NCBI GenBank assembly: GCA_949751835.1
Contig: CATKHK010000115.1
Span: 1-64,000 of the forward strand
Direction: 5' to 3'
Origin: Blepharisma japonicum
Lineage: Eukaryota > Ciliophora > Heterotrichea > Heterotrichida > Blepharismidae
DNA length: 64,000 nucleotides
Each line of letters starts with the position of its first letter. Position 1 is the stretch's first letter. Below, in pieces: positions 1 to 29,000 of this stretch. The notes under the pieces are model-generated. The model did not search any database. It was not told where the DNA came from and saw only the letters and a program-made list of their open reading frames with translations. Position numbers and translations under genes: made by a program.

Positions 1-82
1 ACACCCTAACACCCTAACACCCTAACACCCTAACACCCTAACACCCTAACACCCTAACACCCTAACACCCTAACACCCTAAG
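1..82. repeat. Telomere, about ten CCCTAACA units
   Basis: The window begins with an uninterrupted array of the 8-mer ACACCCTA (CCCTAACA in another phase), about ten perfect units, ending where the sequence changes to AGACTATT. The C-rich strand reads 5' to 3' into the chromosome, as expected at a left chromosome end. This repeat is known from heterotrich ciliates (Stentor, Blepharisma). No degenerate units are seen. Confidence 0.97.
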
Positions 83-7009: not shown

Positions 7010-8045
7010 TAGAATGAAATCAAGCAAACACAGGCGGAAATCTCTCAGGAAGTGCTCACATATCCTTAGCAGAACAAATTTCTGATCCACAACTCCTTCT
7101 CATCTTTAAAGGCAGCGAATATGTTAATTTTTAAACAAAGCATACTATAAGCACTGGGAAATCAACAGTAGCATATTATATAATACACACAGGTAAGCAG
7201 CTAGATTGTGAACTTAATCAATGCTACTAGCTTGATCAGATGCAGCAGTTCTTCCAGGGAAAATTCTTTCACATTTCAATTAAAAATTTTATGATTCAAT
7301 TCTTCCAACTTTTTATTCATTTGTTTCTATTTCGGGATAGCAAAAATTGAATATAAAATTAAAGCCCAGCTGAATGTTAAAGATTTGAAACCGATAAATA
7401 TAAGCAAATAGCATCAGTATTTACTAGAAATATTACATTGCCACCTAAGCTATCCCATCTTAAATTAAGAATGAGTCTTTGGGATATGGAAGTATTTTAT
7501 GCTGCTCGGCAAAGAAATTTCAATTGCAAAAGTATGAATAGATAGACTGTATATGGAAACAGATATAGTATAGATATTAATTTAGAGACAAATTTATCAA
7601 ATTTTTCAGTTAGAATTAAAAGAGTGGAAGTTGAGATAAAAAAGGCTATTTTTGTGAATGTGAATAAAATAAAAGACTACACAAACCAAACACTATGTGA
7701 ATAATTTTTTTTATTTGAAATTTTGCCTTGATCATGGATACACTTATAAGTTTATAATAGAAATGCTGGCAAATAAAAAATTGCTATAAAATGAAATTGA
7801 ATTTGATTGCATGCCAATATGTGGTTAGGGTAAAATTACATACAAATTATAGGTACTTTTAATGCTAAGGATTTAAAGAATAAATCAAGGAGTTGCTATT
7901 CTTCCTTTTCCAGTGAATTGGAAAGTATTCCTCATCCAATGACTCCTAAAAATGGAAATCAAATATATTGCCCACTCATCTATAAATCATGAGACTCAAG
8001 ATACAATTTCCTCAAATACTGCTCTTGCCAGATCATTATTATTAG
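7010..8045 (+). pseudogene. Arrestin-like gene relic, A-type copy 1
   Basis: Homologous at DNA level to the relics at about 8240, 14450 and 22130. Frame pieces spell arrestin N-domain features: a 'VLPG..' stretch (arrestin LPPG), 'LPTFYSF' followed by an IEYK-like strand, then C-domain-like strands near 7740-7960. Many stops (TAA/TAG) and frame changes leave no usable frame. Arrestin-fold proteins act as trafficking adaptors; here only the ancestry is informative. Oldest-looking of the four A copies. Confidence 0.5.
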
Positions 8046-8239
8046 AGAGTTTAATTAGTAATTTAGATAAAAAATGCTTTCATAGCTGAAAATGTTAAAT
8101 AATTTTTAATTTTATGCCATTATGGCATTTAGATTGGCATGCTAATTTTTTCAAGCAAAATAATTTTATAAAAAATTGGGTCATCAAGTTCAGCTGTAAG
8201 CCAAATCACAAAGCATGTGAAAATTTCATTCCTTTCGAA

Positions 8240-9150
8240 AATCTAAACAACTTATAAAATTTTTGGCCAATCAAGATGATATTTCATTAAAAGAGCAAAT
8301 TTCTGATCCACAACTCCTACTCATATTTAAAGGCAGCGAGACAATTGACTTCCAAACAGAGCACACCGAAACAGCTGATTTGTGAGCTTAAAGAGGTGGT
8401 ATTATATTTAGCAAATGCAATAGTTCTTCCAGGAAATTATTCTTTCACTTTTCAACTAAAAATTTATATATCAATTCTACCAACTTTTTATTCTTTTATT
8501 TCTACCTTTTGATTCGCAAAAATTGAATATAATGTCAAAGCCCAGCTGAATGCTAAAAATCTGAAACCGATGAAATTAAAACAAATACTATCAATTTTTT
8601 CTCACAATCTTGATCTAACATCTTATCTAAACCCATCTAAGATTACAAAAGAATGCTCGGGGCATGGAAGCATTTTATAGTGCTTTCGCAAAGAAGGAGC
8701 ATCTGCAAAAATATGATTGGATAGATCCACATTTTGAAATTATAGATAGTATCGAGATTAATTTAATCAATTTTAGAGCTAAAATAAAAAGAGTGGAAAT
8801 TGAGTTGATAAAAAATATTATGTGCACGCTAGCAGTTACAATCCAAAGGCAATAAGCCAAGGACAGAATATGTGAAGGAAAAATTTCTATCCTGAAATTT
8901 TTCCTTTAACTGGGACACAGATCCATAAGTTTACAGTGTCTGTAAAAGAAATTATCGCGAATGAAAATGGCTAAATGTTGAAATCGAGTTTGATTACATG
9001 CCAATATATACTTAGAATAAAATTGCATGCAAATTATCGGTGTTGTAAATCTCATGGATTAATAAAGTGAACCAAGGAATTGCTATTCTCTCTTTTCCAG
9101 TAAATGTGAAAAGAGTTCCTCCAATACTTCCTGAAGAATGAAATCAAATA
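8240..9150 (+). pseudogene. Arrestin-like gene relic, A-type copy 2
   Basis: The clearest arrestin series: 'ISDPQLLLIFKGSE' (early strands), 'VLPGNYSFTFQL' (the LPPG..F.F signature), 'LPTFYSF', 'AKIEYNVKAQL' (IRYxVxAxL strand), 'KITKECSGHGSI', then 'KFTVSVKEI' and 'GIAILSFPVNVKRVPP' of a second domain. The frame is broken by several TAA/TAG codons and indels. The same break after 'ANENG' (a TAA where the B-type copy has a Leu codon followed by TM) occurs in the other A copies. Directly followed by the B-type relic, so the two may once have formed one longer gene. Confidence 0.6.
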
Positions 9151-9154
9151 TTTT

Positions 9155-9990
9155 TCCTAAATCCTTTTGAATACAATATTTATGGCAACCCACTTCCTAG
9201 CTTTCATACAGATGCAGAAGGTAGCTATGCCAAAATAAAATATAAACTTAGTGCTCAATTGCATGCCACAAACAGAAAGCCCTTGAAATTTAAAATACCA
9301 ATTTTTGTATTTACAAATTCAATAATTTTGCCCCAAGATATCTGCCCTCAAGTTCTTTCTCTCTAATGCACAGGCTATGGAAGTATATTTTGCTTCCTCA
9401 AAAAGAATATGCAACGGCAAAAGTGTGAATTGAAAGAAACATATTTGGAAACTTTGATGATATTGAAATTAATTTTGAAAGAATTTATCTGGATTTTCAG
9501 CAGGTATTACTAGGGTGGAATTGATGTTTGAAAATACCTCAAAATGAAAGCAAATATATTAAGTCCAAAAGCAGTTACTCAAGATAATTGGAAGCTAAAT
9601 TCTGTCAAAAACCAAAGATAGAAGCGTTTTTAGGAGTCACTCGGTTTAAATTTACAATTTCTGTAAAAGATATATTGGGTGATGAGCATAGTTTAACAAT
9701 GTCTACTCGACTGATTAAATGTTTATTTACGATGACTATTAAATTATTTACAGATCTTTATTACTGCAAAAGCAATACGTTCGATATGACAATTTTTTGA
9801 GCCATACTTTTACCATTTCAAAAGCAAGCTCCTATGTTGTGTGCTCCAATCGATCCAAACAATGGAAACATAAATTCTACCTAAATCAAATATTAATTCT
9901 AACATTCAGAATTCTAATAACCCAAATCCTTTGATTGTGAATTCTTTAGCGTCTGTATATCAGCAATGCTTTAAAGATGAAGATTTTTTA
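9155..9990 (+). pseudogene. Arrestin-like gene relic, B-type copy 1
   Basis: Begins with a good arrestin N-domain stretch in one frame: 'NPLPSFHTDAEGSYAKIKYK', then 'LSAQLHATNRKPLKF' and 'IPIFVFTNSIILPQ', matching LPPSF..YG.I.Y.L.A.L...K...F..PI.V. The frame then breaks several times. A later piece (from about 9588) includes 'KFTISVKDILGDEHSLTMST', resembling the arrestin C-domain. Pairs with the copy at 16755. Confidence 0.55.
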
Positions 9991-10579
9991 GATTAACTAT
10001 AACAATAATAATATTTTATAATATCTTAAATTTAATGCTAATTTTATTATTTAGATCGAGCAATTAAATTTATTTTTCACTGAGGAGAGCTACATCAAGA
10101 GAAAAGTATTATTTTTGAAAACACAGTAAATGAAAATTTGAAAAAAATGAGAAAAAAATAGTTTAATAAGGAAATCAATATCTAGGGAAGGAGAAATGCC
10201 TAATTAAGAACAAGGAAAAATAGATATTCATGGCTTTAGCAAAAACTAAAAATCCATGGAGCGGATTATTTTTAGACAGTTGCAGATAAAATTGAAGAAG
10301 AGATAAAACTTATGAGGTACTCTACAAAAGCGAATAAAATTATGCTAAATTGCCAAACCTTCGAGGGCTATTGATAATTCTGTATTAATTTTGTCTATCA
10401 AAATCTCCGCTAAGCATTAGGAAATAAAATAGCTCTCATCATTGCTTGTTCCTCTTTAGCCCATTTAATAAATTCACAAAACTTGTAATTATCGTTGTTT
10501 TATTGATAAAAATTTGTAATTGATCTACAATTTTTCTAAGCAAATTTATAAAATAATTTCTAAAGATTTATTATAATAA
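9991..10579. promoter_or_regulatory. 5' flank of WD40-TRP copy 1
   Basis: AT-rich, no open frame. From about 10080 it is closely similar to 17730-18215 upstream of copy 2, so the promoter was copied with the gene. No named element seen. Confidence 0.45.
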
Positions 10580-13500
10580 ATGTCAAGTCATCAAGAATAT
10601 AGAGTAGTTTCTGGAACCGCGGATAAAGATTCATATAATAGCGCTATTTCAGCATTGCCTTCTATTGATCAAATTTCGAAGGGTATGTCAAACTATGGAG
10701 ATCCAATTCCTCTTGCAGTAGATTCGCCAGCTATTGCTATTCATAAAAATCTTCTGTATTGCGGCCAAGCTGATGGGACGATGAGAATATATGATCTGAT
10801 AAGAAAAGAATGAACTAGATCTGGATCGCAGCATAAAGGTGACATTAAAATGGTTTGTATATCAAGCGATGGCAACTTCATTTGCTCCAGCTCGCAAGAT
10901 TGCTTAGTTATTTGAAGAGCTGAATTGACTGATCCAAAAAAATTTTTATTTAGTGAGCTTAATGATTGATGCATTACATATGACAATAAATGATTGATAT
11001 CTGCTTCAAAAAACTCTAAACTAGCTATATGAAGCTTAGAGAAGGGAGACCTAAGCATATTATTAGAAGATAGAATGATGATGATCTGCTGTAAAGTAAC
11101 ATCTCAAAATATTCTTTACTCAGCAGGATGAGATAATTGAATCTATGTGTGAAAATTACCAAATGTGTCACCAATTAAGTATTTAAGAGATCATGCCAGC
11201 AGAATCAATTGCTTACAATTATCCAATGACGAGAATTTACTTTTGTCAGGCTCCAGAGATGGAATAATAATAATTTGAAATACCAACAATAATGAATTAA
11301 ATAAAGAATTGATACTGGACTAAAAGAAGTATTGATGATTGAAATTAGCCTTAATGACCAATTTTTTGCTTCTGCATATGGCTGTATCAAAATGTGATCT
11401 TTTGAGAACATAAGTGAACCATTTTTTGAAACTCAACCAGACCCTGTAATAACACATATAAAAATATCAAAAGATTCAAGATTTTTGATTGCTGCAAGCG
11501 ACAGCAACTCCCCAATAAAAATTTATAGCATAAACCCGGAAAATCCAGATCCAATAGAATCTTTACATATAGCTATTAAGCCAGTCACAGGACTATACGA
11601 ATTTAATGATCCGCCCTGCCTTATTACCAGTAGCTCTAAAATTATTAATATCTGAGATATTGAACGGAGAAGCTTAATTTCGCCATCAAAACGAAAGCAT
11701 TCCAATGAATATGACATAATTAAAATGAAAGTGGTAGGTAAAAATGTATTTTTGACCACAAGTGAAGGAAATTCAATTGCATGCTGGAATCTTGATCAGA
11801 TGAAAAAAATTTGGACGTTAACAGATTCTTCTTTGAAATGCGAGTGCTTTGAAATTACCAGAGATGGCAAGTTTTTAATAGCAAGTTCAATTGAAAATAA
11901 TCTCATGGTATGGCAAACATCAAATTTAGAACGAATTTTAAATAAACAAGCTCATAGAAACGCAGTATGCTTATTCTATGCAACTGACGACTCAAGATTT
12001 TTGCTTTCTGCGGCAGAAGGAGAAGGTATAATCATAGTTTGACAAATAGAGGTTTGGAATCAAGTTACAACCTTACCGGCTACAGTGAGAATCTGGTGTA
12101 TTAAAGAGACAGTAGATAGTATAATTGTTGAATATCAAAATTTTGATATATTGTTCTGGAATAAAGCAAATTGAAGCTATATTCCACAAACTTTGTTTGG
12201 CCATACAAAGTCAATAAGCTATTTGAATTTAATCAAGAATAAGGAATTTCTCATATCGGGATCTTACGACTCAACGATCAGAATCTGGGATCTTGCAAAA
12301 TTTGTTCAAACTGGATGCTTATCTTCTGAAAATTTTCCTATAAAGGATATAAGGATAAATCAAACTGAGAAATATTTAGCTGCCTGCTCGAATAAAAATA
12401 AAACTATCAAGATATGAGATATTGATGAAAAATTTGAAGTTACACATCTTGAAAATTCTGACTATGTAAACAGTTTAGAACTGATTTATGATTCAAAGTT
12501 CATTGTTGCTAGCCTGGATGATGGAAAGCTGGTTTTATGGGATTTTGAGCAGTGATATCAAGTAGCTGTGTTTGTTGACTATACTCGACCTCTGAAAGTA
12601 TTGAAAAATCCACTTGATGACTTAACGATTGTGATGGGGTCATGTGATGGACTTGTATCTGTTTACAACCTCACAAAATTAACTAGCCATCCATCTCAAA
12701 GGGCATCACTGTCAACTCATTCAGATCATTTATATGAAAAAATGACATCATCCTCAATTAAAAATGCTATCTGACAAGATGAAATGATGAAATATAAAAT
12801 GACAATTTTTCCTTTGCGAATAAACTGCTTGCATTACTATAGCTCTAAAAAAATAGATACATATTTACAAAAAGCACTTGATAAAAATTTCCCAATTATC
12901 AAAGATTTAAGCGGTTTTAGTCCATTAAGTTATGCAATTAAAAATAATTCGAAGCAATGCATAATTGAGCTGCTTCGTTTTATATCAGAAATCGAAGATG
13001 AAACTCAAAGCATTTTAGCTTTTCAAGCTATAAAAGATGATATTCCAGACCTTTTTGAAATAAATGTAAATATTATTCCATTCCTTTCCTGCTTGCTAAG
13101 AAAAAAGGAAGAGAAATTTCGAAGTCTTCGAAAAGATTTGCCATTCAGATATTTATCCAATACTGTGATGCTACCTAAGTGAGCATTTCTTAGAGAAATT
13201 AACGAAAATCAGCAAAATAAATTAAAGGAAGTTCAATTCTGAAATAGCCACTTTGGATGAGATTTCACTTTGGGTTCACCTGATAGCTTACGATTTCTTA
13301 AAGCAATCAAAAGCAGGAATGAAATTGAAATTTATCAGAGTTATTATATCCAGTCCTTGATTAAAATTAAATGAGAATCACTTAGACCTTTGATTTGGAT
13401 TCATTCCCTTATTGTTTGGATTAATATTGCTTTGATGAATTCTATTATTTTCACACATGACAGAGTTTACTTATCTATATTTGATATTTCAATGTAATTA

Positions 13501-14381
13501 TGTTCTTCTTTGAAGTTTTTCATCTTTTTTCAGATTGATGAAGCTACTTCACTAACACTTGAAACTATTTAGGCCCCCTTCATTATATTTTTTCTTTTGT
13601 ACTAATAGCTGAAGAGGAAAGTGAACAAATTACTTTACCCATTGTTTTTTTTGCAGTTGTGATTAACTATTTTATCGGACTTCAATCATTTCGTGCCTTT
13701 ACCTTTACTCGGTTTTATGTCTGTTTAATTTTTCGAGCAATTAATGATGCAATTTTTCCCCTAATAGTCCTTCTGTACTCCACTCTTGCATTCGCCACCA
13801 TTTATGCATCGACAGATGAAACAGTAAACATATTATCAGCATGAAGGCGAGCTTTTGAACTTGAGGTTGGGGGTTTTGACAATACCGATTATTCATTCTT
13901 ACAGTACTTATATTTCACTTTTGCAGTTCTAATTAACGTTATTGTATTACTAAGCTTACTTGTATCAGTATTAGGGAACTCTTATTCGGAATCAAAAAAA
14001 CAGGAGAAAGAAATTGATACAAAAGAAATGCTGAAAATAATAATTGAAATGGAAACCCTTTATTGATGGCAAAGACCGAATTTCATAAAAAACATTTTTC
14101 ATTGACTTGAATTTATATTAAATTATAATAATAAACAAAAAAGACATTATGTACAGATATGTGATAACCTAAAAGAAAAAAATATAATAAATACGATAGA
14201 AGAGGATATAAGAAAAATAAGAGCTACATTTAAAACAGAAATAAGTTCATCGAAAAGCACAATCAATTTAAAAATTGACAAGATAGAAGAGGATATAAGG
14301 GTAATGAGAGCAGAATTTAAGGAAGAAATGAGTGCATTGAAGAACACAATTCTGCAAGAAATTCGGCGTCGTGAAGCATAA
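10580..14381 (+). pseudogene. WD40 + ankyrin-like + TRP-like channel fusion gene, copy 1 (two frameshifts)
   Basis: A gene of about 1,270 codons with some 25 in-frame TGA codons, nearly all at WD40 or membrane Trp positions ('KIWDID', 'NIWDIE'). N-terminal ~700 residues: WD40 blades ('SGSYDSTIRIWDL'). Then an ankyrin-like pair ('DLSGFSPLSYAIKNN'), a membrane domain from about 13370, an S6-like segment near 13920-13980 ('LLSLLVSVLGNSY') and a charged coiled-coil tail ending at TAA 14379. TRP-family cation channels have this S5-pore-S6 style end, so a membrane channel with a WD40 sensor or scaffold is inferred. Two one-base losses relative to copy 2 (between 11296 and 11315, and near 13480) break the frame; the downstream parts agree exactly with the frame shift. 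Either young pseudogene lesions or sequence errors. Confidence 0.75.
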
Positions 14382-14449
14382 AGGATGAAACTGTGAAAGC
14401 AACATATTTTTTATTGGATAATAATAATAATAAATAATAAAGATTTGAA

Positions 14450-15259
14450 CAGATGCAACAGTGCTTCAAGGAACTATTCTTTCCCATTTCAACTAAAAAT
14501 ATGATTCAATTATGCCAACTTTTTATTCTTTTATTTCTATCTCTGGATTCGCAAAAATTGAATATAAAATTAAAGCTCAGCTGATTGCGAAAAATCTGAA
14601 ACTAATGAAATAGAAAACAAATCATATCAGTTTTTACCGCAATCTTAAGCTACCGTCTTATTTATACCAACCCAAGATTACAAAAGAATGCTCAGGGCTT
14701 GGAAGCATTTTATGGTGCTTTCGCAAAGAAGGAACAATTGCAAAAGCATGAATGGATAGGCCTACATTTGGAAATAAATATAATATTGATATTAATTTAG
14801 AGACAAATTTATCCAATTTTAGAGCTAAAATAAAAAAAGCGGAAATTGAGTTAATAAAAATTATTTATGTGTATGCTAATAAATCCAATCCAGCAGCTAT
14901 AAGTCAAGGACAAAAAATATGAAGGAAAATTTTTTATCCTGAGATATTGCCTGTATCTGGGGGACAGATCCATAAGTTTATAGTGTCTGTAAAAGAAATG
15001 ATGGCGAATGAAAATGGTTAAACAATGAAATATAGTTTGATTACATGCCAATATATACTTTAGAATAAAATTGCATATAAATTATCGGTGTTGTAGATGA
15101 TATGGATTTAATGAAGTGAACCAAGGATTTTCTATTCTCTCTTTTCCAGTGAATGTGGAAAGAGTTCCCTCCAACACCCCCTGAAGAATGAAAATCAAAT
15201 ATTTTATCTTGCTCATCAATAAGTTATGAAACTCAAGATGCAATATCCTCATATACTGC
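14450..15259 (+). pseudogene. Arrestin-like gene relic, A-type copy 3
   Basis: Begins 70 bases after the WD40-TRP copy 1 stop. Carries 'MPTFYSF'-like, 'AKIEYKIKAQL' and 'KITKECSGLGS' pieces, then 'FYPEILPVSGGQIHKFIVSV' and the shared break after 'ANENG'. A C-terminal piece (15120-15250) matches the A1 copy. Shares lesions with the other A copies, so it was copied after it had died. Nearest relative is the copy at 22130. Confidence 0.55.
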
Positions 15260-15946
15260 CCTTGCTAGATCATTTGTTTCACTCTCCTTGGTTAGCGAAT
15301 AAGCATTTTAATAGTCCAGAAGAAGGGTAATTTTTTTCAAAATATTTGCATGAAATTGCATATTAAAATAATATTATTGTGTAGTCCAAGCAGAAAACAT
15401 GACCTGTAGAGTGTGTGTGAGTATGTTTGTCTAGCTGCACCAGTTCTTGATCCCAATGCATGAACATTTTTTATGTGCAATTTAAAAAGTATCCAAGCTT
15501 ACTGTTTAGTCAGAAATCCAGAGAAACTAGTATGCTCTTCAAATTTGCCTTCACATTTGGCAAAAAATCAAAAGCCTCTTTAAGTCAAATGAAAGAAAGC
15601 CACGAGCAGCAAAAAATTATGCCAGTAAATTAGATATAATCTCTTGTTTTAATTGATCAATGACTTGGAATATATTGAAGCTTGGACTACAATGTACGTT
15701 TATATAAAATCAAATTGTGATAAACTTCTAAAGGAAAAAGAATATAGGGCCATTCTTTAATAAAAATTTTATTTAAGTGTAGCATGCATATCTATATGCC
15801 CTTATTTTAATTAAATTTGAATGAAAATCAATAAGCTATGTTTCAAATCAAACACTGGTAGCGACTTTTAAATCCATGGAATCAGAGAGCTCGAACTTTG
15901 CTCTAAAAACTAAGTCCGATAAAATATATAAGTAGATATAATATTA
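15260..15946. other. Spacer between duplicated blocks
   Basis: About 690 bases not present in the second block. A 57-codon frame (15417-15591) stays open with TGA = Trp but has no ATG and no recognised family. Otherwise AT-rich; the end must hold the promoter of the next gene. Confidence 0.35.
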
Positions 15947-16528
15947 ATGGAAAATCAGCTCAACAGTGTACGCTTAGATATATCTCGAGGAGCAATGAAA
16001 GCAGATGCAATTGGATTCGCATCCTTTGGAGCACTCTTTATCGTACTTTCACTTTTCCCATGAAATCAAGAAATATTTCTCTGAAGTGCATTACTTTATT
16101 CACCTTATTTCATTGTTGCGTTTTTTGGCTATAAAAGCTCAAAATCTCACCATAAGTCAACTTTAGAGTGTTATAACGTAATTTTGATGATTATTTGTTG
16201 TTATTTTGTTGTACTTGCAATTTTAGCAATTGTGCTATTTGGTGTTGGCTTATTTGGAGTATTGGAATATGAATGTGGCTATAATAATCATGATAGTTGC
16301 GGCCTCACAGAATGGATTGGTTGACTCGCTGTTTTTTTGCTAGGATTTATGGGGCTTTTATTAACTTCAAGCAGTGTACTTACAATTTTTGCTATAACTC
16401 ATTCAAATAAGACGACTAGTCTTCTATCTGGTAAAATGAAGAAATACCAAGAGCCTTTAATGTATCAGCAGGCACCTCCTGTAATGAACCCAATTTACCC
16501 TCAACAAATTAAACAAGGTTATTATTAA
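15947..16528 (+). CDS. Small four-TM membrane protein, unknown family
   Basis: A 193-aa protein found only with TGA = Trp: TGA at 16061, 16082 and 16322 are read as Trp ('FPWNQ', 'FLWSA', 'IGWLA'). Four hydrophobic segments at about residues 20-38, 42-62, 80-108 and 126-150. A Cys-containing loop between the third and fourth ('YECGYNNHDSCG') is tetraspanin-like in layout but lacks a CCG motif. The tail is short, cytosolic, and rich in Pro, Gln and Tyr ('YQQAPPVMNPIYPQQ'). I do not recognise the family. It sits alone between the two duplicated blocks, and its undamaged frame suggests it is a functioning gene. Start: first ATG, with stops upstream. Confidence 0.75.
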
Positions 16529-16749
16529 GATAGAATTAAAATAATGATATATTTAAATGAAATCAGAATTGAGTATACAGTTGAATTTTGTTTTATTGCA
16601 CTATAAATAATCTTAACAGCTATAAAATATTTGTTTAACATTCAATTTGTAAACTCTATAGAAATAATGCCTTTTTAATCTTAAAATTCTTAATGCTTTC
16701 GAGAAAGTCTAAATAGCTTTTTCATAATTTTGACTTGATCAAAAAATTA
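16529..16749. other. Spacer before the second duplicated block
   Basis: AT-rich 3' flank of the four-TM gene. Nothing supported. Confidence 0.4.
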
Positions 16750-16754
16750 TTTTT

Positions 16755-17585
16755 TCCTTTTGAATTCAATATTTATGACAACCTCTTCCTAGCTTTCATA
16801 CAGATGCAGAAGTTAGCTATGCCAAAATAAAATATAAACTTAGTGCTCAATTGCATGCCACAAACAGAAAGCCCTTGAAATTTATAATACCAATTTTTGT
16901 ATTTACGAATTCAATAATTTTGCCCCAAGATATATTCTCTCAAGTTCTTTCTCGTGAATGAGCATGCTATGGAAGTACATTTTGCTGCTTTAAAAAGAAT
17001 ATGCAACAGCAAGTGTGAATTGAAAGAAGCATATTGGAAACCTTGAATATTGAAATTAATTTTGAAACGAATTTATCTGGATTTTCAGCAGGTATTACTA
17101 GGGTGGAATTTGATGTTTAAAATACCTCAAAATGAAACAAATGAATTAAGTCCAAAAGCAGTTACTCAAGATAATTGGAAGCTAAATTCTGACGAAAAAC
17201 CAAAGATAGAAGCGTTTTCAGGAGTCATTCGCTAAAATTTACAATTTCTGTAAAAGATATATTGGATGATGAGCATAGTTTTACAATGTCTACTCAACTG
17301 ATTAAATGTTTCTTTGCGATTACTATTAAATTATTTACAGATCTCTATTGCTGCAAAAGCTATACGTTTGATATGGCAGATTTTTGAACTGCACTTTCAT
17401 CATTCAAAAGCAAGCTCCTATGTTGTGCGCTCCAATCGATCCATAACAATGGAAACCTAATATTCTACCTCAATCGGCTATTAATCCTAACATTCATGGT
17501 TCTAATAACCCAAATCTTTTAATTGCGAATTCTTTTGCGTTCGCAAAACTGCAAGGGTTTAAAGATGAAGATTTTCCAGATTAAT
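16755..17585 (+). pseudogene. Arrestin-like gene relic, B-type copy 2
   Basis: Homologous along its length to the relic at 9155. Same arrestin-like opening ('LPSFHTDAEVSYAKIKYK'), then 'LQVLLGW'- and 'SPKAVTQDNWKLNSDEKPK'-type pieces, with frame breaks at several places. Some breaks are shared with copy 1, others are not. Not expected to make a protein. Confidence 0.55.
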
Positions 17586-18215
17586 TATAATAATATTTTA
17601 TCCAAGAGCTTACACATCAAATCATTTTAACAATTTAAGTTGCAAAATATTGGGAAATACCGATAAGCTATAGTATGGATTGCAACATTTTAAGCTCTCT
17701 GGGGCTCAGATTTAAAGATCAACCTTGTTTTATATTTTTGAAAAGACGCAGTAAATAAAAATTTGAAAAAATGAGAGAAAACTAGTTTAACAAGGAAATC
17801 GATATTTAGGGAAGAAGAAATGCCTAATTAAGAACAAGGAAAAATAGATATTCAAAGCTTTAGCAAAAACTAAAAATCCATGGAGCGGATTATTTTTAGA
17901 CAATTGTAGATAGAATTGAAAAAGAGATAAAACTTATGAGGTACTCTACAAAAGCGAAAAAAATTATGCTAAATTATCAAACCTTTGAGGGCTATTGATA
18001 ATTCTGATTAATTTTATCTATCAAAATCTCCGCTAAGGATTAGAAAATAAAATAGCTCTCATCATTGTTTGTTCCTCTTTAGCCCATTTTAATAAATTCA
18101 CAAAACTTATAATTATCCATTAAATCTCGTCATTTTATTGATAAAAATTTTAATTCAATCTACAATTTTTTCTAAGCAAATTTATAAGATAATATCTAAA
18201 GATTTATTATAATAA
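17586..18215. promoter_or_regulatory. 5' flank of WD40-TRP copy 2
   Basis: AT-rich, no coding frame. The last ~490 bases closely match 10080-10579. Conservation covers the whole flank, so it reflects recent duplication and does not single out a motif. Confidence 0.45.
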
Positions 18216-21200
18216 ATGTCAAGACATCAAGATAATAAAGTAATACCTGGAACCGCGGAGAATGATTCAAATAATAGTGAACCTCAATCATTGCTTTCTA
18301 TTGATCAAACTTTGAGCCATATCAAGAGCTATGGAGATCCAATTTCTATAACACTAAATTTGCCAGCTATTGCTATTCATAAAAATCTTCTATATTGCGG
18401 CCAAGATGATGGGACGATGAGAAGATATGACCTGATAAGAAAAGAATGAACTAGACCTTGATCGCAGCATTTGAATGGCATTAAAATGGTTTGTATATCA
18501 AGCGATGGTAACTTTATTTGCTCCAGCTCGTCAGATTGCTCAGTTATTTGAAGAGTTGAATTGATTAATCCAAAAAGATTACCATTAAATGAGCTTAATG
18601 ATTGATGCATTACATATGACAATAAATGATTGATATCTGCTTCAAAAAACTCTGAACTGGCTATATGAAGCTTAGAGAACGGAGACCAACTCAAATTATT
18701 AGAAGATAGAATAATGATGATCTGCTGCAAAGTAACCTCTCAAAATATTCTTTACTCAGCAGGAGTAGATAATGGGATCTATGTGATGGACATAAGCAGT
18801 ATAAGCAATGTTTCACGAATTAAGACTTTAAAAGATAACACCAGCAGAATCAATTGCTTACAATTAACAAACGATGAGAATCGACTTTTGTCAGGCTCAA
18901 GCGATGGAATAATAACAATTTGAAATACCAACAATAATGAATTAAACTCAAGATTTAATACTGGATTAGAAGAAGTATTGATGATTGAAATTAGCCTTAA
19001 TGACCAATTTTTTGCTTCTGCATATGACTGTATCAAAATGTGATCTTTTGAGAACACAAGTAAACCCTTTTTTGAAACTAAACCAGACCCTGTAATAACA
19101 CATATAAAAATATCAAAAGATTCAAGATTTTTGATTGCTGCAAGCGACAGCAACTCCCCAATAAAAATTTATGGCATAAACCCGAAAATCCAGATCCAAT
19201 AGAATCTTTACATATAGCTATTAAGCCAATCACAGGACTATACGAATCTAATGATCCACCCTGCCTTATTACCAGTAGCTCTAAAATTATTAATATCTGA
19301 GATATTGAACGGAGAAGCTTAATTTCGCCATCAAAACGAAAGCATCCCAATGAATATGACATAATTAAAATGAAAGTGGTAGGTAAAAATGTGTTTTTGA
19401 CCACAAGTGAAGGAAATTCAATTGCTTGCTGGAATCTTGATCAAATGAAAAAAATTTGGACGTTAACAGATCCTTCTTTGAATTGCGAGTGCTTTGAAAT
19501 TACCAGAGATGGCAAGTTTTTAATAGCAAGTTCAACTCAAAATAATCTCATGGTATGGAGAATGTCAAATAGAGAACGAATTGTAGATACAAAAGCTCAT
19601 AGAAACGCTGTTTACTTATTCTATGCAACTGAAGACTCAAGATTTTTGCTTTCTGCAGCAGAAGGAGAAGATATCATAGTTTGGCAAATAGAGGGTTGGA
19701 ATCAAGTTATACCCTTACCGGTTTTAGCGAGAATCAGATGTATTAAAGAGACAGTAGATAGTATAATTGTTGAATATCAAAATTTTGATATATCTTTCTG
19801 GAATAAAGCAAATTGAAGCTTTGAATATCAAAATTTTGATATATCTTTATGGAATGAATCAAATTTAAATAATATTCCACAACCTTTTTCTGGCCATAAT
19901 AGTTCAATAAGCTATTTCCGGGATAAAGTAAATGGAAGCAAGGATCCACAAACTTTATCTGGCCATAAAAATTCAATAAGCTATTTGAATTTAATCAAGA
20001 ATAAGGAATTTCTCATGTCGGGATCTTACGACTCAACGATCAGAATCTGGGATCTTGCAAAATTTGTTCAAACAGGATGCTTATCTTCTGAAAATTTTCC
20101 TATAAAGGATATAAAGATAACCCAAACTGAGAAATATTTAGCTGCCTGCTCAAATAAAAATAAAACTATTAAGATCTGAGATATTGATGAAGAAATTGAA
20201 GTTACAAATTTTGAAAATTCTGACTATGTAAACAGTTTAGAACTGATTTATGATTCAAAGTTCATTGTTGCTAGCCTGGATGATGGAAAGCTGGTTTTAT
20301 GGGATTTTGAGCAGTGATATCAAGTAGCTGTGTTTGTTGACTATACTCGACCTCTGAAAGTATTAAAAAATCCACTTGATGACTTAACGATTGTGATGGG
20401 GTCATGTGATGGAATTGTATCTGTTTACAACCTCACAAAATTAACTAGCCACCCATCTCAAAGGGCATCACTGTCAACTCATTCAGATCATTTATATGAA
20501 AAAATGACATTATCCTCAATTAAAAATGCTATCTGACAAGATGAAATGATGAAATATAAAATGACAATTTTTCCTTTGCGAATAAACTGCTTGCATTACT
20601 ATTGCTTTAAAGACTTAAATAAACCTTTAAAAAAAGCACTTGATTATAATTTCCCAATTATCAAAGATTTAAAAGGTTTGAGTCCATTAACTTATGCAAT
20701 TGAAAATAAGTCACAGCAATGCATAGCTGAGCTGCTTCGTTTTATATCAGAAATCAAAGATGAAACTCAAAGCATTTTAACTTTTCATGCTATAAAAGAT
20801 GATATTCCAGACCTTTTTGGAAAAAATGTAAATATTATTCCATTCCTTTCCTGCTTGCTAAGAAAAAAGGAAGAGAAATTTCAAACTATTCGAAAAGATT
20901 TACCATTCAGATATTTGTCCAATACTGTGATGCTACCTAAGTGAGTATTTGTTAAAGAATTTAACGAAAAACAGCAAAAGAAATTAAAGCAAGTTCAGTT
21001 CTGAAATAGCCACTTTGGATGAGATTTCACTTTGGGCTCACCTGATAGCTTACGATTTCTTAAAGCAATCAAAAGCAGGGATGAAATTGAAATTTATCAG
21101 AGTTATTATATCCAGTCATTGATTAAAATTAAATGAAAATCACTTAGACTTTATATTTGGGCTCATTCCCTTATATTTTGGATTAATATTGCTTTGATGA

Positions 21201-22063
21201 CTTCTGTTATTTTCACACATAACAGAGTTTGCTTATCTCTATTTTGATGAGCCAATATACTTCTGTTCTACTTTGAAATTTTTCAAATTTTTTCAGATTT
21301 ATGAAGCTACATCACTAACCCTTGAAACTATTTAGACCTCTTACGTTATATTTTTTGCTATTGACTAATCGCTGAAGAGGAAAGTGAACAAATTGCTTTA
21401 CCCGTTGGTTTTTTTGCAGTTGCGATAAACTATTATATCGGATTGTTCTCATTTCGTGCCTTAAGCACAACTCGGTTTTATGTCCGTTTAATTTTTCGAG
21501 CAATTTACGATGCAATTCTTTTCCTAATAATCCTTCTGTACTCCATTCTTGCATTCGCCACCATTTATGCATCGACAGATGAAACAGTAAACATACTATC
21601 AGCATGAAGGCAAGCTTTTGAACTTGAGGTTGGGGGTTTCGACAATACCGATTATTCATTCTTACAGTACTTATATTTCACTTTTGCTGTTCTAATTAAC
21701 GTTATTGTATTACTAAACTTACTTGTATCAGTATTAGGGAACTCTTATTCGGAATTAAAAAAAGAGGAGAAAGAAATTGATACAAAAGAAAAGCTAAAAA
21801 TAATAATCGAAATGGAAACCCTTTTATGATGGAGAAGGCCGAATTTCATAAAAACCATTTATCATATAATTAGATTTATATTTGGATGAAATTATAATAA
21901 TAAACAAAAAAGACATTATGTACAGATATGTGATAGCCTAAAAGAAAATATAATCAATACGATGGAAGAGGATATAAGGGAAATGAGAGAAGAATTTAAA
22001 ACAATCAATTTAAAAATTAACAATATCTGCAAGAAATTGGGCGTCGTGGAGCATGAAGGATAA
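18216..22063 (+). pseudogene. WD40 + ankyrin-like + TRP-like channel fusion gene, copy 2 (one frameshift)
   Basis: About 1,282 codons, ~25 TGA read as Trp, stop TAA at 22061. WD40 region 18216-20540. Ankyrin-like pair 20600-20760 ('DLKGLSPLTYAIENKSQQC'). S1-like segment near 21150-21220 ('LIFWINIALMTSVIF'); further segments at 21230-21300, 21330-21380 and 21400-21500, the last with Arg residues ('SFRALSTTRFYVRLIFRAI'). S5-like 21508-21580. Pore/S6-like 21640-21750, ending 'LLNLLVSVLGNSYSE'. Coiled-coil tail. A single one-base loss near 19184 (CCCGAAAAT; CCCGGAAAAT in copy 1) is the only break. The ion and gating stimulus are unknown. Copy 1 is intact exactly where this copy is broken, and vice versa. 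Confidence 0.78.
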
Positions 22064-22129
22064 AATTGTAAAAGCAACCTATTTTTTATTGAATAATAAT
22101 AATAATATAACTATAAATAATAAAGGTTT

Positions 22130-22744
22130 GAACAGATGCAACAGTTCTTCCAGCGAACTATTCTTTCCCATTTCAACTAAAAATTTATGATTCAATTATG
22201 CCAACTTTTTATTCTTTTATTTCTATCTCTGGATTCGCAAAAATTGAATATAAAGTGAAAGCTCAGCTGATTGCGAAAAATCTGAAACCAATGAAATATA
22301 AACAAATCGTATCAGTTTTTACTCGCAATCTTAAGCTACCGTCTTATTTATACCCACCCAAGATTACAAAAGAATGCTCAGGCCATGAAAACATTTTATG
22401 GTGCTTTCGCAAAGAAGGAACAATTGCAAAAGCATGAATGGATAGATCTACATTTGGAAATAAAGATAATATTGATATTAATTTAGAGACAAATTTATCC
22501 AATTTTAGAGCTAAAATAAAAAGAGTGAAAATTGAGTTGATAAAAAATATTTATGTCTACGTTAATAAATCCAATCCAGCAGCTATAAGCCAAGGACAAA
22601 AAATGTGATAGAAAATTTTTTATCCTGAGGTATTGCCTTTATCCATAAGTTTACAGTGTCTGTAAAAGAAATGATGGTGAATGAAAATGGTTAAACAATG
22701 AAATCTAGTTTGATTACATGCCAATTTATACTTAAGGTTAAATT
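22130..22744 (+). pseudogene. Arrestin-like gene relic, A-type copy 4
   Basis: The least damaged A copy. From 22198 a frame runs through one TGA (Trp in 'IAKAWMDRS') to a TAG near 22612: 'LPTFYSF', 'AKIEYKVKAQLIAKNLKP', 'KITKECSGHENILWCF', then a 'NLSNFRAKIKRVKIELIKNI' strand, all in arrestin N-domain order. It lacks the LPPG-like segment in frame. The C-domain part is shortened and also carries the shared break after 'VNENG'. Could conceivably yield a ~140-aa fragment. Confidence 0.55.
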
Positions 22745-23020
22745 ACAGATAGCAAAAATTAAAGTTATAAATATAAAATCCCGTTTAACTCTCCTAGCAT
22801 TAATGAAAAAATACAGGCAAAATGGCTTATTATGAATACTCTGAATTCAATCAGTTTTCAAGCATTCCTCTATAAATTTGGTTTATATCACAGACTACAC
22901 AAGGAAAATACCTTGAAGGCAATTGGATAGATAAATTATAAAGTTAAATAAAAACTAGCAACTATCCTATTATAATTCATCTAATTGCTATTTTAAAATT
23001 ATATTAAAGTTATTGAAATA
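22745..23020. other. Spacer, 3' flank of HYDIN
   Basis: AT-rich, no supported frame. Lies between the end of the duplicated block and the leftward HYDIN gene's stop. Confidence 0.4.
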
Positions 23021-26000
23021 TTATTCTCCAGAAAGATAATAGATCCACGGAGGTAAATCACCTGCAGTAATGATCATTCTTCCAGTGGGTGGCTTTCCTT
23101 CTTGAGGTTTATACACAACTTGTATAGAAATCGATTTCTTCGAGTCCAGTCTCACAGGAGATTTCGTTGAAATTGTAAAAGCTGGGTTATCAATTCTGAT
23201 TGTGTACTCCATAGGTTCATAGAATGGATTTCTAAAGTCAATGCCAGTTCCTTTTGCAGGAATACACTTGAATGGCCCTTGTGGCATTGGGGACGATGAA
23301 TGCCCAAACAATAAACAAGTGTATTCTCCTCCTTCAGGATGGACTACTGTCATCATTGCTCGGCTTTCTCCAAGTGTGCTTGGTTCATATCTGACAGGCA
23401 GTGAAATCTCTATACCATCCCAATTAGAACAAATAGGTGCATCAATGACAGGCTTGTCAACAAGAAAATCAGCTGGACCTGTGCCATTTATTTTTTCTAA
23501 TTTGATTTGGTATTGGACTTGCTTCTTCAAGAAATGCTGGAACCTAAAAGCTTGCACAAGCTCAGTTCCAAGTGAAGTTGCAAAGTGCAGGTTCCTATGA
23601 GTAGTGTTAGGAATACCTTTAAGCTGCAAAATATAGTTGAATTCTCCAAGTTGGGTCGATTTAACACATAATTTAGATTGCAATTCAGCGACTATGAGTG
23701 GCCTGTATATAACTTCAATTCCTGACTCTGATTTTGGAGGGATTTCAAGCCACTCAGGCTCTATTGAGACATATTCATTATCACACACAATCATAGCTCT
23801 TGTAATTTCTATAGGTGTTTCTAGAGGATTTGCAATCATAATCACTTTTTGGGTCACTTCTCTTACAGGGCTCACTAATTCTACAACTCCTTGCTGTTCT
23901 TGCTGAAGAGCTTTCATTTCTATATTGAAAAATATGTATTCCTTGTTTGCAGGATTTGTAAAGGTGATTTTGAATTTTGTGACCCCAGTTTTATAGGTAA
24001 GGAAATTCAGTTTATATTCTTTGGTGCTGTAGGCTGGAACATCAAAAGTGCTAGCTCCTCTAATCAGGACAGCAGGGTCAGCTTCTCCTTCAATATCCCA
24101 TTTGACTTCAAACCGCTGGACTACTTCAAGCCAATTTTTGACAGGCAAAATCAAGATTTTTGCTACTTTTGCTTTGATTTCTTGGACTACTGTATCAACT
24201 GGCCTAGGAGGCTTAGAAGTTCCAATTAGGTTGAAAAGTAAAGCAGTGCCGTCAGGAAGAGGGAAGAAAAGTGTGGCTTGGTGAAGAAGCTCTGGGGTTG
24301 TCATAGTGATTGGCTTATAAGAAACCTCAAAGTCTGCAACTGAGTTAGGATTGATCTCCAATGCGTTTGCACAAGTCCAATATTTCTTAGTAAAATCTGA
24401 ATTCGTGCTTATACTAGGCTGAATTCGTCATTTGGCAGTTGTAGGATTTTTGACTTGGACTTTTTGTGTCTGAGATTCTCTCACGATAGCTTCAAATCGC
24501 AGATCTTTTGTGGACTCTGGAGTTGGAGGTATACAGGAACCATGGAGAGTAAGGAAAATAGGGTCAGAACCTTGGATATTGCAAGGAATTTTATTGATTC
24601 GAATATCAGGAGAAATGAATGCAGGATGGAAAGTGATATCAAAATAAAGCTCAGCATTGGCTTGAATAATTCCTTGGTCTGGGGTGATGGTGAAATGCTC
24701 GCTATATTTAGAAGAATCCCATTGAAAATGGCAAGGAATGTCTCCAATATTTAGCAACTGGATTGCTTTACTTTGGTGGCTGCCTTGTATGACGACTCCA
24801 AAGCTGACAACTTCTTCCATAAGTTTCAGCTCAATCCCATGACAAGCTCCACTAATAGTCAGCAGCTTCCTCGTTTCCCCATTGTCAAACTTCACTAATA
24901 AATCGTCTGTAAATGGATGAAGTCTTTCTTTTGGCTTAAAGCCTATCTCAATTGGCAAAGTTTGCTTAGGCTTCAGAATGACTTCATTGTCTGGGGTGTA
25001 AGTCACAGAATGCTTTTTAAGAGAATCCAGTCCACTTCCATCAATCAGAGAGAAATTCACAGACCGCTTGGATTTATTGAGAAGTTGCACGGTTTTAGTT
25101 TTTTCAACTCCTGCCCTAGACACACCAAAATCGACGATTTCTTGGTCTCTGCTTCCAAGTTCAAGTTTAACTGGGCAGCCTTCACCTTTGACTTTCACCT
25201 GGATTTTATGAATATTGTTGATATCGAAGTCAATAGTTTCTTGATACACGACATGGTCTCGAGGGGTAAACAAAATTGGAACTAAAAGCTTTTTCTTTTC
25301 GAGCTCAGGATCAGTAGGGGAAGTTGGGAGCAAAACTTGTCCAGGGGCAAGCTGAACGTCAAGATGAGGGAGCCTTTCAAAATTAGTTTCGACAGAAATT
25401 GCAGTGTTGTCATAATTCACGATCTCTAAGTTGACTGTCTTCGTAAGAAGAGTTCTCAGTACAAAGCAAGGCCCGAAATCCTTTTCTAAAAAGCTGAACT
25501 GCACACCAGGCTTTCTTGCGCTTCCTTTACAGATAAATGAATAAGTAGGTCCACTGACGATACTCAGCTGGAACTTAGCTTTGGAAAGCTTATGCTCTGT
25601 TAGTGGGGCGTATTTAAGATAAATGCTTACACTTTCTCCAGATTTAACTGTACCTTGCTCAGGGGAAATTGCAACATAACGAGAAGAGTTAGGCATTTTC
25701 CAAGAAAAATCGAAGTTAAATTTGCCAGAATTCGTGATCTTCACTGATCTGCTTTGACATTCATTAATAAAAATGTCACCAAAATTCACCTCACAAGGCT
25801 CATCAACCAATAAAGCACGAGAATTTTCATAGTGGACTGAATGCGAAATCACATAGCCTACACCTTTTACATTTAGTACCAGTTGCCTAGCCTTTCTTTT
25901 TACATTACAAACTAAGTTATAGTTGAATCTTGTCTCACGCTTCGGTCTAAAAGTAATTTCTATTGGGATTGAGCCTTGAGGAGGGATTTCTCCATTTATA

Positions 26001-29000
26001 GGAGAAACTACCAATGAGTCTCCATAGGATTCTTCTCCTTTGATAGAATCTCGGTCAAAAGAAAATATGAATGGGATGATTTCTTCATTTATGAGCTGAA
26101 TGGTTTCTTTAGCTTTTCCACCAATTAAAAGCTGATTGAAATCAATCATACCTTTTTCAAGAGAAACATGAGGCTCGAGAACAGTCCCAACAATCAGGAA
26201 CTTTTGCGTGATGTTTTCACCTGGAATTCTGAATTTCCAATAGCTTTCATGAGTTCCTACAGTCTCTGGGGTATATTCAAAAGCCATTTCAAATTTCTTG
26301 CCAGATAGAATTACACCTTTAGGGGTTACACAGCTAAACTGCTTCAGCGAGAATTCACTGCCTTCAACTTCTTCAGGCTCCCATAAAAATTCGTAGCCTT
26401 GGCTTGTAGGGTTGACGACATAGAATCTTTTTGTGTTTTTCACTTTGGTTCCCATGCTTTCAAAATCAAGGATCTGGTAATTGCTGTCAACTGGGGCCAT
26501 ATCTTGAGCTTTTTTCTCTCTATAAGAGCTTGGAGGCAGCTCAAAGTGGCAGATCGGTCTAATGCTTTTTCCTTTCAGCTCTATAACAAGTGGCTTTAAT
26601 TCAGGGGCGAGGTTGTTCAAAGAGCAGATTAAGAGTCGCTCATTAATAGATTCTACTTCAGAAGGCGAAAACTTGATATTGATGAACTCGACACAGCCAG
26701 GAGCAATGACTCCTTCTCTTGGAGAAACACTATATGGGCCTGCATCTAATTTCCCAGTGGTTGCAGAACAAATCTTGAATCTATAAGGCATAGCGATTTT
26801 TGCTATATTTTTCAAAGGCAGTTTATAGCTTCTTGATGCAAACATAAGGGTTGACGCAAACCTGATTTCTTGGAATTCACAATTGTACCTTATATAATCG
26901 GCAACAGCAGTGACTTTCAAAGGTACCTGCTTCTGTGTCTTATCAATTTCTGTAAAAGTTGGCTCTTTTCTGACTTCGTTGATTTCAATATTTGCTTCTC
27001 CATCGTCAACTTCTTCTTCTATGACTTCTGATTTTTTCTCTTCTTTTTTCTTTGCGGCTGGTGCTGCCTTTTTGGCTCCTTTTTTCAATGAGGCTTCATA
27101 CTCTTCTTTTTTCCTTTTTTCTTCTTCTTCTTTCCTTTTCATGATTTTCTCATATTGCTTTTGAGTTACCATACGAGTATCAAACATAGAATTGTCCCAG
27201 TCTTCAAAATGGGCTGAAGCTTGGTTAATCTGTATGGTTTGGCAGATTAGGTCTAAATTTTTGTACTCCTGGGTTTCATCAGCTTTAAAAGTCAAGGTGA
27301 TTTTTTTGCTGGATTTAGGGGCTAGATGTCCGACCGAAGGGCTGAAAAAGAAGTGAGGTCTTTCAGGCCACTCGAACTTGATGATTTTGTCTGTAAAGTT
27401 GTGAAGGTGGAAAGTGAGGTATTTCTCTTGCCCGACGATGCAGTCTCCAAAGTTGCACTCGTCTTCTTTGTCGTCTGGGAGGTGGGTGAACATGACATCT
27501 TCTTGGTAGCCTTCTCCGATTAAGGAATAGAGCTGAGACTCATAAGGGTTGCTTAATGTAGTTATCCTCAGCTCATGTGTTGCTTTTTGTACGACATCTG
27601 GGAGGTAAAAGACTTCAAAACTCATGCTGGTTTTTGGCTGAAGAGTTGCACTCATGGTATCCTGGAACTTGAAGTTCTTATGATACTCCATTTCAACTTT
27701 TACAGTAGCTGGGATAACTCCTCCATTCATAAGGTTAATCAGTGCTTTCGACGTCTTTCCAACTCTTGTTTTAGCAAACTTGACAAGTGACTTTCCATCT
27801 TCAGCTAATAAAGGATTTATTTGAGTGACTGTTGGCAAGGTCCCTTCTCCTCTGAGCTCAAAGGTAAGTTTATGTGTCTTAGGATTAGGCTCTCCAAATT
27901 CTACAACTCCTTCAAAAATTCCTCCATATGACAGCATATCAGTAGGCTTAAAAGTGACCTTTACATATTCATGAGAGTGGGGTGGGATATGAACTTTTAG
28001 AGGAACTACTTCAAAAGAGAAACCTTCAGACTTGCTGGTTGTCCTTGGCTTTACTGAAAATGTGATATTAGCTGGTACTTTGGCTGCATTCATTATTTTG
28101 AATTTTTCTATAATTCCTTCATGGTTTTTTGCAGAAGTATAAGTACCGTATAGGAACACGTTTTCTTCAATAGAGAAAATTTTTGAAGGCATAATTGTGC
28201 CTGGGGTTGCTCCTTTTGCGAGCTCTAGAGACTGGACAACAGTTTGCTCCTCGAAAATTGCATCAAAGTCCCATGTGTTTACTCCTGGGATACAGCTTTC
28301 ACCAGCCAGGACATATGGAATTCCTTGAGGATTGTCAGTTGGATCTCTATTAGAAATATTGATTGCAAGAGTTTTTTCATATAACCGAGAACCATCAGCG
28401 TTAAATGTCACATTAATAAGCACAGAGCTGTTTCTTGGAACAGTCCCTTGACTAGGAGAAATGTTAAATGGTCCAATATCAGCAGAAATCACAACTTCTT
28501 TTCCTTTTGCAGGCTTCTTTTCAGCTTGCTTTTTCTTAGCCTCTTCTTTTCCTTTTCCTTTGACTTCTTCTTTAGGCGTTTGCTTTCTAGCTGCCCTTTC
28601 GATTGCTCTTTGTCTTTCATCAATAAGCTCAGTTATTGAGAATTCAAAATCAAAGATCCCTTCATTTTTAACTTCAAAAGTCCTGCTTCGGTTTTCTCCA
28701 TACCTGAGAGGGCCGAAGTTTATATTTCTCAATGGATGAATGCTATACTTGCTGAAAACTGCGTTGCATGCTACATTTATAGGGAATTCCTCATATTTTT
28801 GGCCGCTTCCTCCTTCTAAAATTGCAAGTTTTATGCCAGATTCTTCTTTTGCAGGTTCAATTTTTTTTTCTTTGTCAGTCTTAAACTTCACAACAAATGG
28901 CTGTGTTTGATTAGGTAGAATTGAACCTTCAGTAGGGGAGCAAGCGAACATCTCTCGAGTTTGTTTTTTCTTCATGATAAAATTATATTTGATTTCATAT

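What the first reader, a model, noticed from the sequence alone, without database searches (positions are those of the whole stretch)
10580..22063. WD40 + ankyrin-like + TRP-type channel fusion, present in two tandem copies
A ~700-residue WD40 array joined to an ankyrin-like pair and a six-TM-style channel domain with an S6 ending in LLNLLVSVLGNSY is an unusual architecture; TRP channels normally carry ankyrin arrays, not WD40 propellers, at the N-terminus. With TGA as Trp the parts are one continuous gene. A propeller could gate or tether the channel. This is the best candidate in the window for an undescribed system.
Basis: partly seen in the sequence, partly recalled or inferred. Interest (0 to 1): 0.75.

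Follow-up and report, generated by a model that had tools for sequence, protein, structure and literature searches.

The report
WD40-capped TRP channel gene family
The window holds two decayed copies of a gene that joins a long WD40 propeller array to a TRP-type ion channel, and the same ciliate genome carries dozens of intact relatives in which the channel is conserved while the propeller changes faster, as if one cell kept a repertoire of different sensor heads on one pore.

Summary
The fusion is real. The two window copies are probably decayed members of a large, mostly intact family in the same genome.

Of 40 fetched paralogues, 37 encode one uninterrupted ORF of 1173-1377 aa with a WD40 array (14-16 blades in six regular members), an ankyrin-like pair and a six-TM domain; one of the 37 lacks the pore. 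The channel is TRP-type, closest to TRPV among solved structures (Drosophila Inactive, E 7e-17; TRPV3). A channel-only query finds 79 loci; 73 have propeller sequence in the same ORF or within 2.3 kb upstream. Propeller and channel trees largely agree, so the fusion is old.

The window copies carry three one-base frame shifts that 15/16-bp introns cannot repair. Copy against copy, dN/dS is 0.98 (0.76-1.31), against 0.35 for an intact pair of similar divergence: probable pseudogenes, 10-22 kb from a telomere.

In four intact pairs dN/dS is 0.12-0.24 in the pore part and 0.38-0.69 in the propeller; the family is enriched near contig ends. Inferred mechanism: a TRPV-like cation channel whose variable double propeller binds partners and tethers or gates a conserved pore. 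No printed description was found in the library searched; other heterotrichs were not testable.

The parts
1..80 (+). telomeric repeat (permutation of CCCTAACA) at the contig start
   Evidence: the same repeat is reported for Blepharisma in PMC9942806 (passages)
9162..15079 (+). first unit of a tandem duplication holding copy 1 and flanks
   Evidence: blastn self-comparison in pieces, 88-92% identity to 16755-22751
16755..22751 (+). second unit of the tandem duplication holding copy 2 and flanks
10580..12740 (+). copy 1, WD40 array (broken by a one-base frame shift near 11303-11323); end approximate
   Evidence: frames; Pfam WD40; comparison
12800..13230 (+). copy 1, ankyrin-like pair and linker; limits approximate
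   Evidence: Ank_2 E 0.035; by correspondence with copy 2 in the family alignment A2
13230..14381 (+). copy 1, six-TM channel domain and helical tail (second frame shift near 13475-13497)
   Evidence: Ion_trans E 0.0056 on 13425-14378 (below cut-off); matches
18216..20510 (+). copy 2, WD40 array (one-base frame shift near 19176-19192)
20573..20995 (+). copy 2, ankyrin-like pair and linker domain
   Evidence: Ank_2 E 0.0057 (below cut-off); conserved in A2
21167..21739 (+). copy 2, S1-S6 transmembrane domain; pore segment with conserved Gly near 21626-21650
   Evidence: family-mean hydropathy; Ion_trans E 6e-5; TRP matches
21740..22063 (+). copy 2, post-S6 helix with invariant Glu and charged helical tail
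   Evidence: alignment A2

Best explanation
The window carries two decayed, telomere-near copies of a large family of TRP-type channels in a Blepharisma-like ciliate. Shown at sequence level: 37 intact ORFs each encode a WD40 array (14-16 blades detected in six regular members, so probably two propellers), a short ankyrin-like pair with a linker, a TRPV-like six-TM domain (pore missing in one) and a helical tail; the fusion is old and inherited largely as a unit; in the pairs tested the pore part is more constrained than the propeller; the window copies evolve close to neutrally. Inferred: four subunits form a cation (probably Ca2+-passing) channel; the double propeller hangs from each subunit on the cytosolic side where TRPV channels carry ankyrin repeats, binds a partner (cytoskeleton, signalling protein or intracellular ligand) that differs between paralogues, and passes that binding on through the ankyrin/linker region to the pre-S1 and post-S6 helices, tethering or gating the pore. 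Duplication and loss near chromosome ends keep renewing the set of propellers, and the window shows the loss side of that turnover.
For: One-ORF architecture in 37 of 40 fetched paralogues; WD40 matched in 38 of 38 aligned members; Ion_trans in 29 of 38 C-terminal parts at E <= 0.01, best 3e-14. TRP matches: profile to Inactive E 7e-17 and TRPV3 2e-14, the 60 rows shown of 176 all being TRP channels; single proteins to TRPV3, Inactive and TRPA1; NCBIfam trp in 3 of 3 proteins, below its cut-off. 73 of 79 channel loci have propeller sequence in the same ORF or within 2.3 kb upstream on the same strand. Propeller and channel trees share 22 of 35 splits; distance correlation 0.69 against at most 0.19 in 2000 permutations. 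Propeller less conserved than the 6TM part in 11 of 13 pairs chosen from the tree; in four pairs dN/dS 0.38-0.69 against 0.12-0.24. dN/dS between the window copies 0.98 overall and 1.05 in the channel piece. Enrichment near contig ends.
Against: No functional data, no expression data and no usable structure: both AlphaFold runs failed (mean pLDDT 38.3 and 34.6). The ankyrin match is weak (5 of 38 members at E <= 0.01) and shorter than the TRPV domain. At the aligned TRP-box position no tryptophan is common; the conserved Trp of the family lies further on, in an LLFW motif. One of the 37 intact ORFs (L040) lacks S5-pore-S6, so at least one paralogue cannot conduct. Trees of the two parts differ in 13 of 35 splits. 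Two of 13 pairs go the other way on conservation, in one of the four dN/dS pairs (L026/L037) the intervals overlap, two of the four pairs share L013, and no propeller dN/dS exceeds 1, so relaxed constraint or misaligned blades are possible. Six of 79 loci show no propeller, one of them (C11:424926) without an evident reason. Nothing shows that the propeller gates rather than merely localises the channel.
Confidence: 0.6

Rival explanations
1. The propeller is only an address label: it anchors a TRP channel to ciliary or cortical scaffolds and plays no part in gating; differences between paralogues reflect different places in the cell.
For: Among the 60 PDB matches shown of 1011 for the full-length profile are ciliary WD40 proteins such as CFAP52, along with many others; WD40 propellers are commonly scaffolds (established knowledge); no gating evidence exists.
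Against: None direct; the ankyrin/linker region between propeller and pore is also rather conserved (dN/dS 0.14-0.38 in four pairs), which suits coupling as well as tethering.
Confidence: 0.3
2. Propeller and channel are separate genes that happen to sit side by side, and the fusion is an illusion of reading UGA as Trp.
For: In the window itself the frames are broken.
Against: 37 of 40 fetched paralogues are single ORFs across the parts; at C129:18131-21598 (not fetched) the channel and propeller matches lie in one 1256-aa open frame with no stop codon of any kind in the matched stretches; trees of the two parts largely agree.
Confidence: 0.03
3. The window copies are functional and their frame shifts are sequencing or assembly errors.
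For: All three breaks are single-base length differences between similar tandem copies, where assemblers err. The overall interval of dN/dS (0.76-1.31) overlaps that of the fastest intact propeller (0.56-0.87, L013/L014).
Against: dN/dS between the copies is 0.98 against 0.35 (0.26-0.47) for an intact pair of similar divergence, and 1.05 in the channel piece where four intact pairs give 0.12-0.24; the neighbouring 13.5-kb ORF and 37 of 40 paralogues carry no break.
Confidence: 0.15
4. The channel is not TRP-type but a member of another six-TM family (voltage-gated, polycystin).
For: PKD_channel matches 4 of 38 members; a weak Cav3 match appears for copy 2 (E 0.05); the TRP-box Trp is not at its place.
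Against: The best matches are TRP in the profile search and in three single-protein searches; NCBIfam trp in 3 of 3 proteins.
Confidence: 0.07

Closest known systems
TRPV channels (Inactive/Nanchung, TRPV3, TRPV1-6)
   Same: S1-S6 with pore loop, S6 end (family consensus NLLisilgdt aligned to TRPV3 NMLIALMGET), conserved Glu after S6, a KW pair before S1, ankyrin-like repeats before the pore (alignments)
   Different: WD40 array at the N-terminus; only a weak ankyrin-like pair instead of a six-repeat domain (six is recalled); no Trp at the TRP-box position
TRPA1 / TRPM
   Same: Weaker matches to the same six-TM region
   Different: Their own large N-terminal regions (recalled) were not specifically searched for; Pfam shows WD40 there instead
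Long WD40 arrays in solved structures (2ymu, Apaf-1 C-terminus, CFAP52, PWP2)
   Same: Long WD40 array, blades of about 42 residues
   Different: Here in one ORF with an ion channel
Chlamydomonas TRP channels (TRP1, ADF1/TRP15)
   Same: Protist TRP-type channels; a TRP-like channel in the PDB (6pw4) also matches; its identity as algal TRP1 is recalled
   Different: In the passages of PMC5068960 shown (12 of 18 places) WD40 is mentioned for FAP16, a different protein; no fusion described there

Membership tests
TRP superfamily | six-TM domain with pore loop between S5 and S6 | tested here: met
   Family-mean hydropathy peaks; Ion_trans in 29 of 38; 37 of 38 aligned C-terminal parts keep the pore stretch, L040 lacks it
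TRP superfamily | closest sequence matches are TRP channels | tested here: met
TRP superfamily | TRP box after S6 with conserved Trp (motif recalled; TRP families without it exist, also recalled) | tested here: not met
   No Trp among the five commonest residues of post-S6 columns 410-439 in 38 members, though an aligned helix with invariant Glu is there; a conserved Trp follows in the LLFW motif
TRPV subfamily | six N-terminal ankyrin repeats (recalled) | tested here: not met
   Only an ankyrin-like pair; Ank_2 in 5 of 38 at E <= 0.01. The pore resembles TRPV, but the family is not filed as TRPV
TRPV subfamily | groups with TRPV in a tree of TRP channels | not tested
   Ranking of matches only; no TRP reference set was available to build a tree
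WD40 propeller proteins | repeats of about 42 residues matching the WD40 profile | tested here: met
   38 of 38 members match Pfam WD40; 14-16 repeats in six of the 37 intact paralogues, 4-13 detected in the rest
WD40-TRP fusion family of this report | channel and propeller in one uninterrupted ORF | tested here: met
   37 of 40 fetched paralogues, one of them without the pore; not met by the two window copies

The most novel reading that the evidence does not exclude
A single-celled organism keeps a receptor-like repertoire of dozens of TRP channels (37 ORFs verified intact, up to 79 loci) in which a conserved pore is read out by a faster-diversifying intracellular WD40 double propeller; the repertoire grows and decays near chromosome ends, and different propellers sense different intracellular partners or ligands.
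Probability: 0.3. Interest if true: 0.82.

Novelty: new variant of a known kind. Interest (0 to 1): 0.66.

Why it matters
TRP channels are known by ankyrin and other N-terminal extensions (established knowledge). A WD40 double propeller in that place, in dozens of intact paralogues, offers a natural experiment in how a cytosolic domain is wired to a TRP pore. It also gives a candidate set of channels for the sensory behaviour of heterotrichs. The split between a conserved pore and a changing propeller makes a repertoire hypothesis directly testable.

Tried and rejected
Two genes side by side: rejected by one-ORF paralogues and largely matching trees. Small introns as the cause of the frame breaks: rejected by frame arithmetic, since 15- and 16-bp introns cannot give a shift of 2 mod 3. 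Another six-TM family: weak matches only. Structure prediction: both runs gave unusable models (mean pLDDT 38.3 with three window sequences, 34.6 with one), so no fold search was run. Relatives in viral contigs and prokaryote genome contigs: none found with six peptide patterns each.

Counting notes. One search lists 84 rows. I merged two split pairs and dropped three short rows (two on C81, one on C201), leaving 79 loci, the two window copies and some fragments included. Loci without propeller evidence (6 of 79): C151:48601, C91:3, C11:424926, C75:134592, C217:5582, C19:262276. The last three have internal TAA/TAG stops, C91:3 begins at its contig's start, C151:48601 lies near the estimated end of its contig, and C11:424926 is unexplained. 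The propeller list used was typed, with a few rows cut by eye to their propeller part; upstream meant the same strand and at most 2.3 kb away. Of the three fetched loci that are not single ORFs, L032 is open at its contig's end, L031 ends about 0.1 kb from its contig's end and has a TAA in the matched stretch there, and L038 is split in two frames. The 13 pairs and the four were picked by eye from the tree; one search also gave 0.14-0.51 for the other intact pairs tested, one being saturated.

Contig ends. Lengths were exact for 31 contigs, taken from telomere positions for four and interpolated for the rest, because contigs are ordered by size; the last was set to 5 kb by guess, and the interpolated total is 45.7 Mb against 45.2 true. 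An earlier count said 37 known lengths; 35 is right. The control list (89 rows) was picked by hand from the printed rows (157 matches, not all printed), leaving out tandem arrays and family members, and missed three rows; one search adds them and one entry per array (99). The enrichment shrinks when only contigs of 100 kb or more are used (14 of 54 against 7 of 84, p 0.006), because assemblies also break at recent duplicates.
Full report
Setting. The window begins with telomeric repeats (1-80) and is the start of contig C115 of a 45.2-Mb, 224-contig assembly. The CCCTAACA telomere, UGA = Trp and 28-41% GC agree with what passages of PMC9942806 report for Blepharisma stoltei (41 Mb, 66% AT, UGA to Trp, 15/16-bp introns). 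I therefore read the source as a Blepharisma-like heterotrich; its name was not given.

The observation. Two tandem copies lie at 10580-14381 and 18216-22063, within a duplicated unit of about 6 kb (9162-15079 and 16755-22751, 88-92% identical in pieces). WD40 matches are strong, the ankyrin-like pair is weak, and Ion_trans is matched in copy 2 at E 6e-5, slightly under its cut-off. Neither copy is continuous. Copy 1 has two frame breaks and copy 2 one, all needing a shift of 2 mod 3, which introns of 15 or 16 bp cannot repair.

The family. The copy 2 fragment finds 78 matches in the genome, with 46 of 345 candidates scored. Of the 40, 37 hold one uninterrupted ORF of 1173-1377 aa; two are too close to contig ends to judge and one is split in two frames. 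WD40 is matched in 38 of 38 aligned members, the window fragment included. In their C-terminal parts Ion_trans is matched in 29 of 38 and Ank_2 in 5 of 38 at E <= 0.01. Six regular members show 14-16 repeats at a 42-residue period, the others 4-13 detectable ones; from the length of the array I infer two propellers. One intact ORF (L040) lacks S5, pore and S6, so 36 of the 40 are single ORFs with a complete channel.

How many. A channel-only query gives 84 rows, 79 loci after merging and dropping three short rows. For 73 of 79 a propeller match lies in the same ORF or within 2.3 kb upstream on the same strand, counting the 37 one-ORF members. Of the other six, three have internal stops, one begins at a contig start, one lies near an estimated contig end and one (C11:424926) is unexplained.

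What the channel is. A profile of 38 C-terminal parts matches Drosophila Inactive (TRPV) at E 7e-17, then TRPV3, TRPV2, TRPV6, TRPM8, TRPV1 and TRPA1 (60 of 176 rows shown). Single proteins agree: TRPV3, then TRPM2 and Inactive (L035; one non-TRP match on the tail at E 0.003); Inactive (E 1e-4) with a weak Cav3 match at 0.05 (window copy 2); TRPA1 (E 0.004, L033). NCBIfam's trp model matches 3 of 3 proteins, far below its own cut-off. In the alignment the pore Gly is kept in 35 of 38, the S6 Asn in 36 of 38, and a Glu after S6 in 38 of 38. No Trp is common at the TRP-box position; one follows later in an LLFW motif. I file it as TRP superfamily with a TRPV-like pore, not as TRPV.

One unit of inheritance. 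Trees of the propeller part and of the channel part share 22 of 35 splits, some weakly supported; their distances correlate at 0.69 against at most 0.19 in 2000 permutations. The fusion therefore predates most of the radiation of these paralogues.

Conserved pore, changing propeller. In 13 pairs picked from the tree the propeller averages 50% identity, the ankyrin/linker 62% and the 6TM part 65%; the propeller is the less conserved in 11 of 13. In four close pairs dN/dS is 0.38-0.69 in the propeller, 0.14-0.38 in the linker and 0.12-0.24 in the channel. In L026/L037 the propeller and channel intervals overlap, two pairs share L013, and no value exceeds 1, so relaxed constraint is possible. Misaligned blades could also inflate the propeller values.

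The window copies are decaying. Over 1148 codons the two copies differ with dN/dS 0.98 (bootstrap 0.76-1.31); an intact pair of similar divergence (L026/L037) gives 0.35 (0.26-0.47). In the channel piece alone it is 1.05 over 266 codons, where intact pairs give 0.12-0.24. The overall interval does overlap that of the fastest intact propeller (0.56-0.87). The main piece of each copy against the intact relative L009 gives about 0.4, so constraint seems to have been lost after the split from L009.

Chromosome ends. 30 of 79 loci lie within 20 kb of a contig end, against 13.5 expected under a uniform null and 11 of 99 for other Ion_trans genes (p 2e-5). With clusters collapsed it is 26 of 66 against 11 of 90; keeping only contigs of 100 kb or more it is 14 of 54 against 7 of 84 (p 0.006). 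Of 12 loci in the window's clade (L009-L018 and the two window copies; the sister L040, about 47 kb from an end, left out), 8 lie within 20 kb and 10 within 22 kb of an end. Contig lengths are partly interpolated and Blepharisma telomeres are added at many sites (PMC9942806, passages), so this is suggestive rather than settled.

Mechanism. Inferred, not shown: a tetrameric cation channel in which the propellers occupy the cytosolic skirt and act on the pore through the linker and the post-S6 helix, with each paralogue binding a different partner. The main rival is a pure address label. Both structure runs failed.

Literature. Ten searches of the held library (three returned nothing, and one search listed 10 of 100) gave no paper that, from its listing, describes a WD40-TRP fusion. 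Passages were seen in PMC5068960, PMC7935092, PMC9942806 and PMC10946202; none shown described one, and the last three do not contain the word WD40. The Stentor genome paper is not held. Sequence databases of eukaryotes were not searchable, so entries with this architecture may exist unnamed.

Noticed in passing
window 7195-9157, 14450-15205, 22133-22747: A repeated segment of about 0.6-0.8 kb (71-89% identical copies) flanks the channel copies; one fragment (9049-9363) resembles an arrestin N-terminal domain (E 0.017, below cut-off), and the copies look degenerate.
   Followed up: partly
L040 (G000:C66:219500-226500), around position 1760 on the minus strand: An intact WD40-ankyrin-S1-S4 ORF in which S5, pore and S6 are missing in frame: a possible non-conducting paralogue.
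   Followed up: partly
window 15932-16528: A 198-aa ORF rich in hydrophobic stretches between the two copies; only sub-threshold Pfam matches.
   Followed up: no
window 23021-36559, minus strand: A 4512-aa uninterrupted ORF of HYDIN/CFAP65-type Ig-like domains, also a sign that the assembly is not generally frame-shifted.
   Followed up: partly
window 1-24000 against 24000-64000: GC is 0.28-0.33 in the telomere-near 24 kb, where the decayed copies lie, and 0.33-0.41 beyond.
   Followed up: no
window 3027-3926 and 5112-6089: Two short-chain dehydrogenase ORFs close to the telomere.
   Followed up: no
G000 contigs C95, C16, C71, C26, C51, C159, C6: Clusters of strong Ion_trans matches spaced like multi-domain voltage-gated channels, in tandem arrays (the reading is inference).
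   Followed up: no
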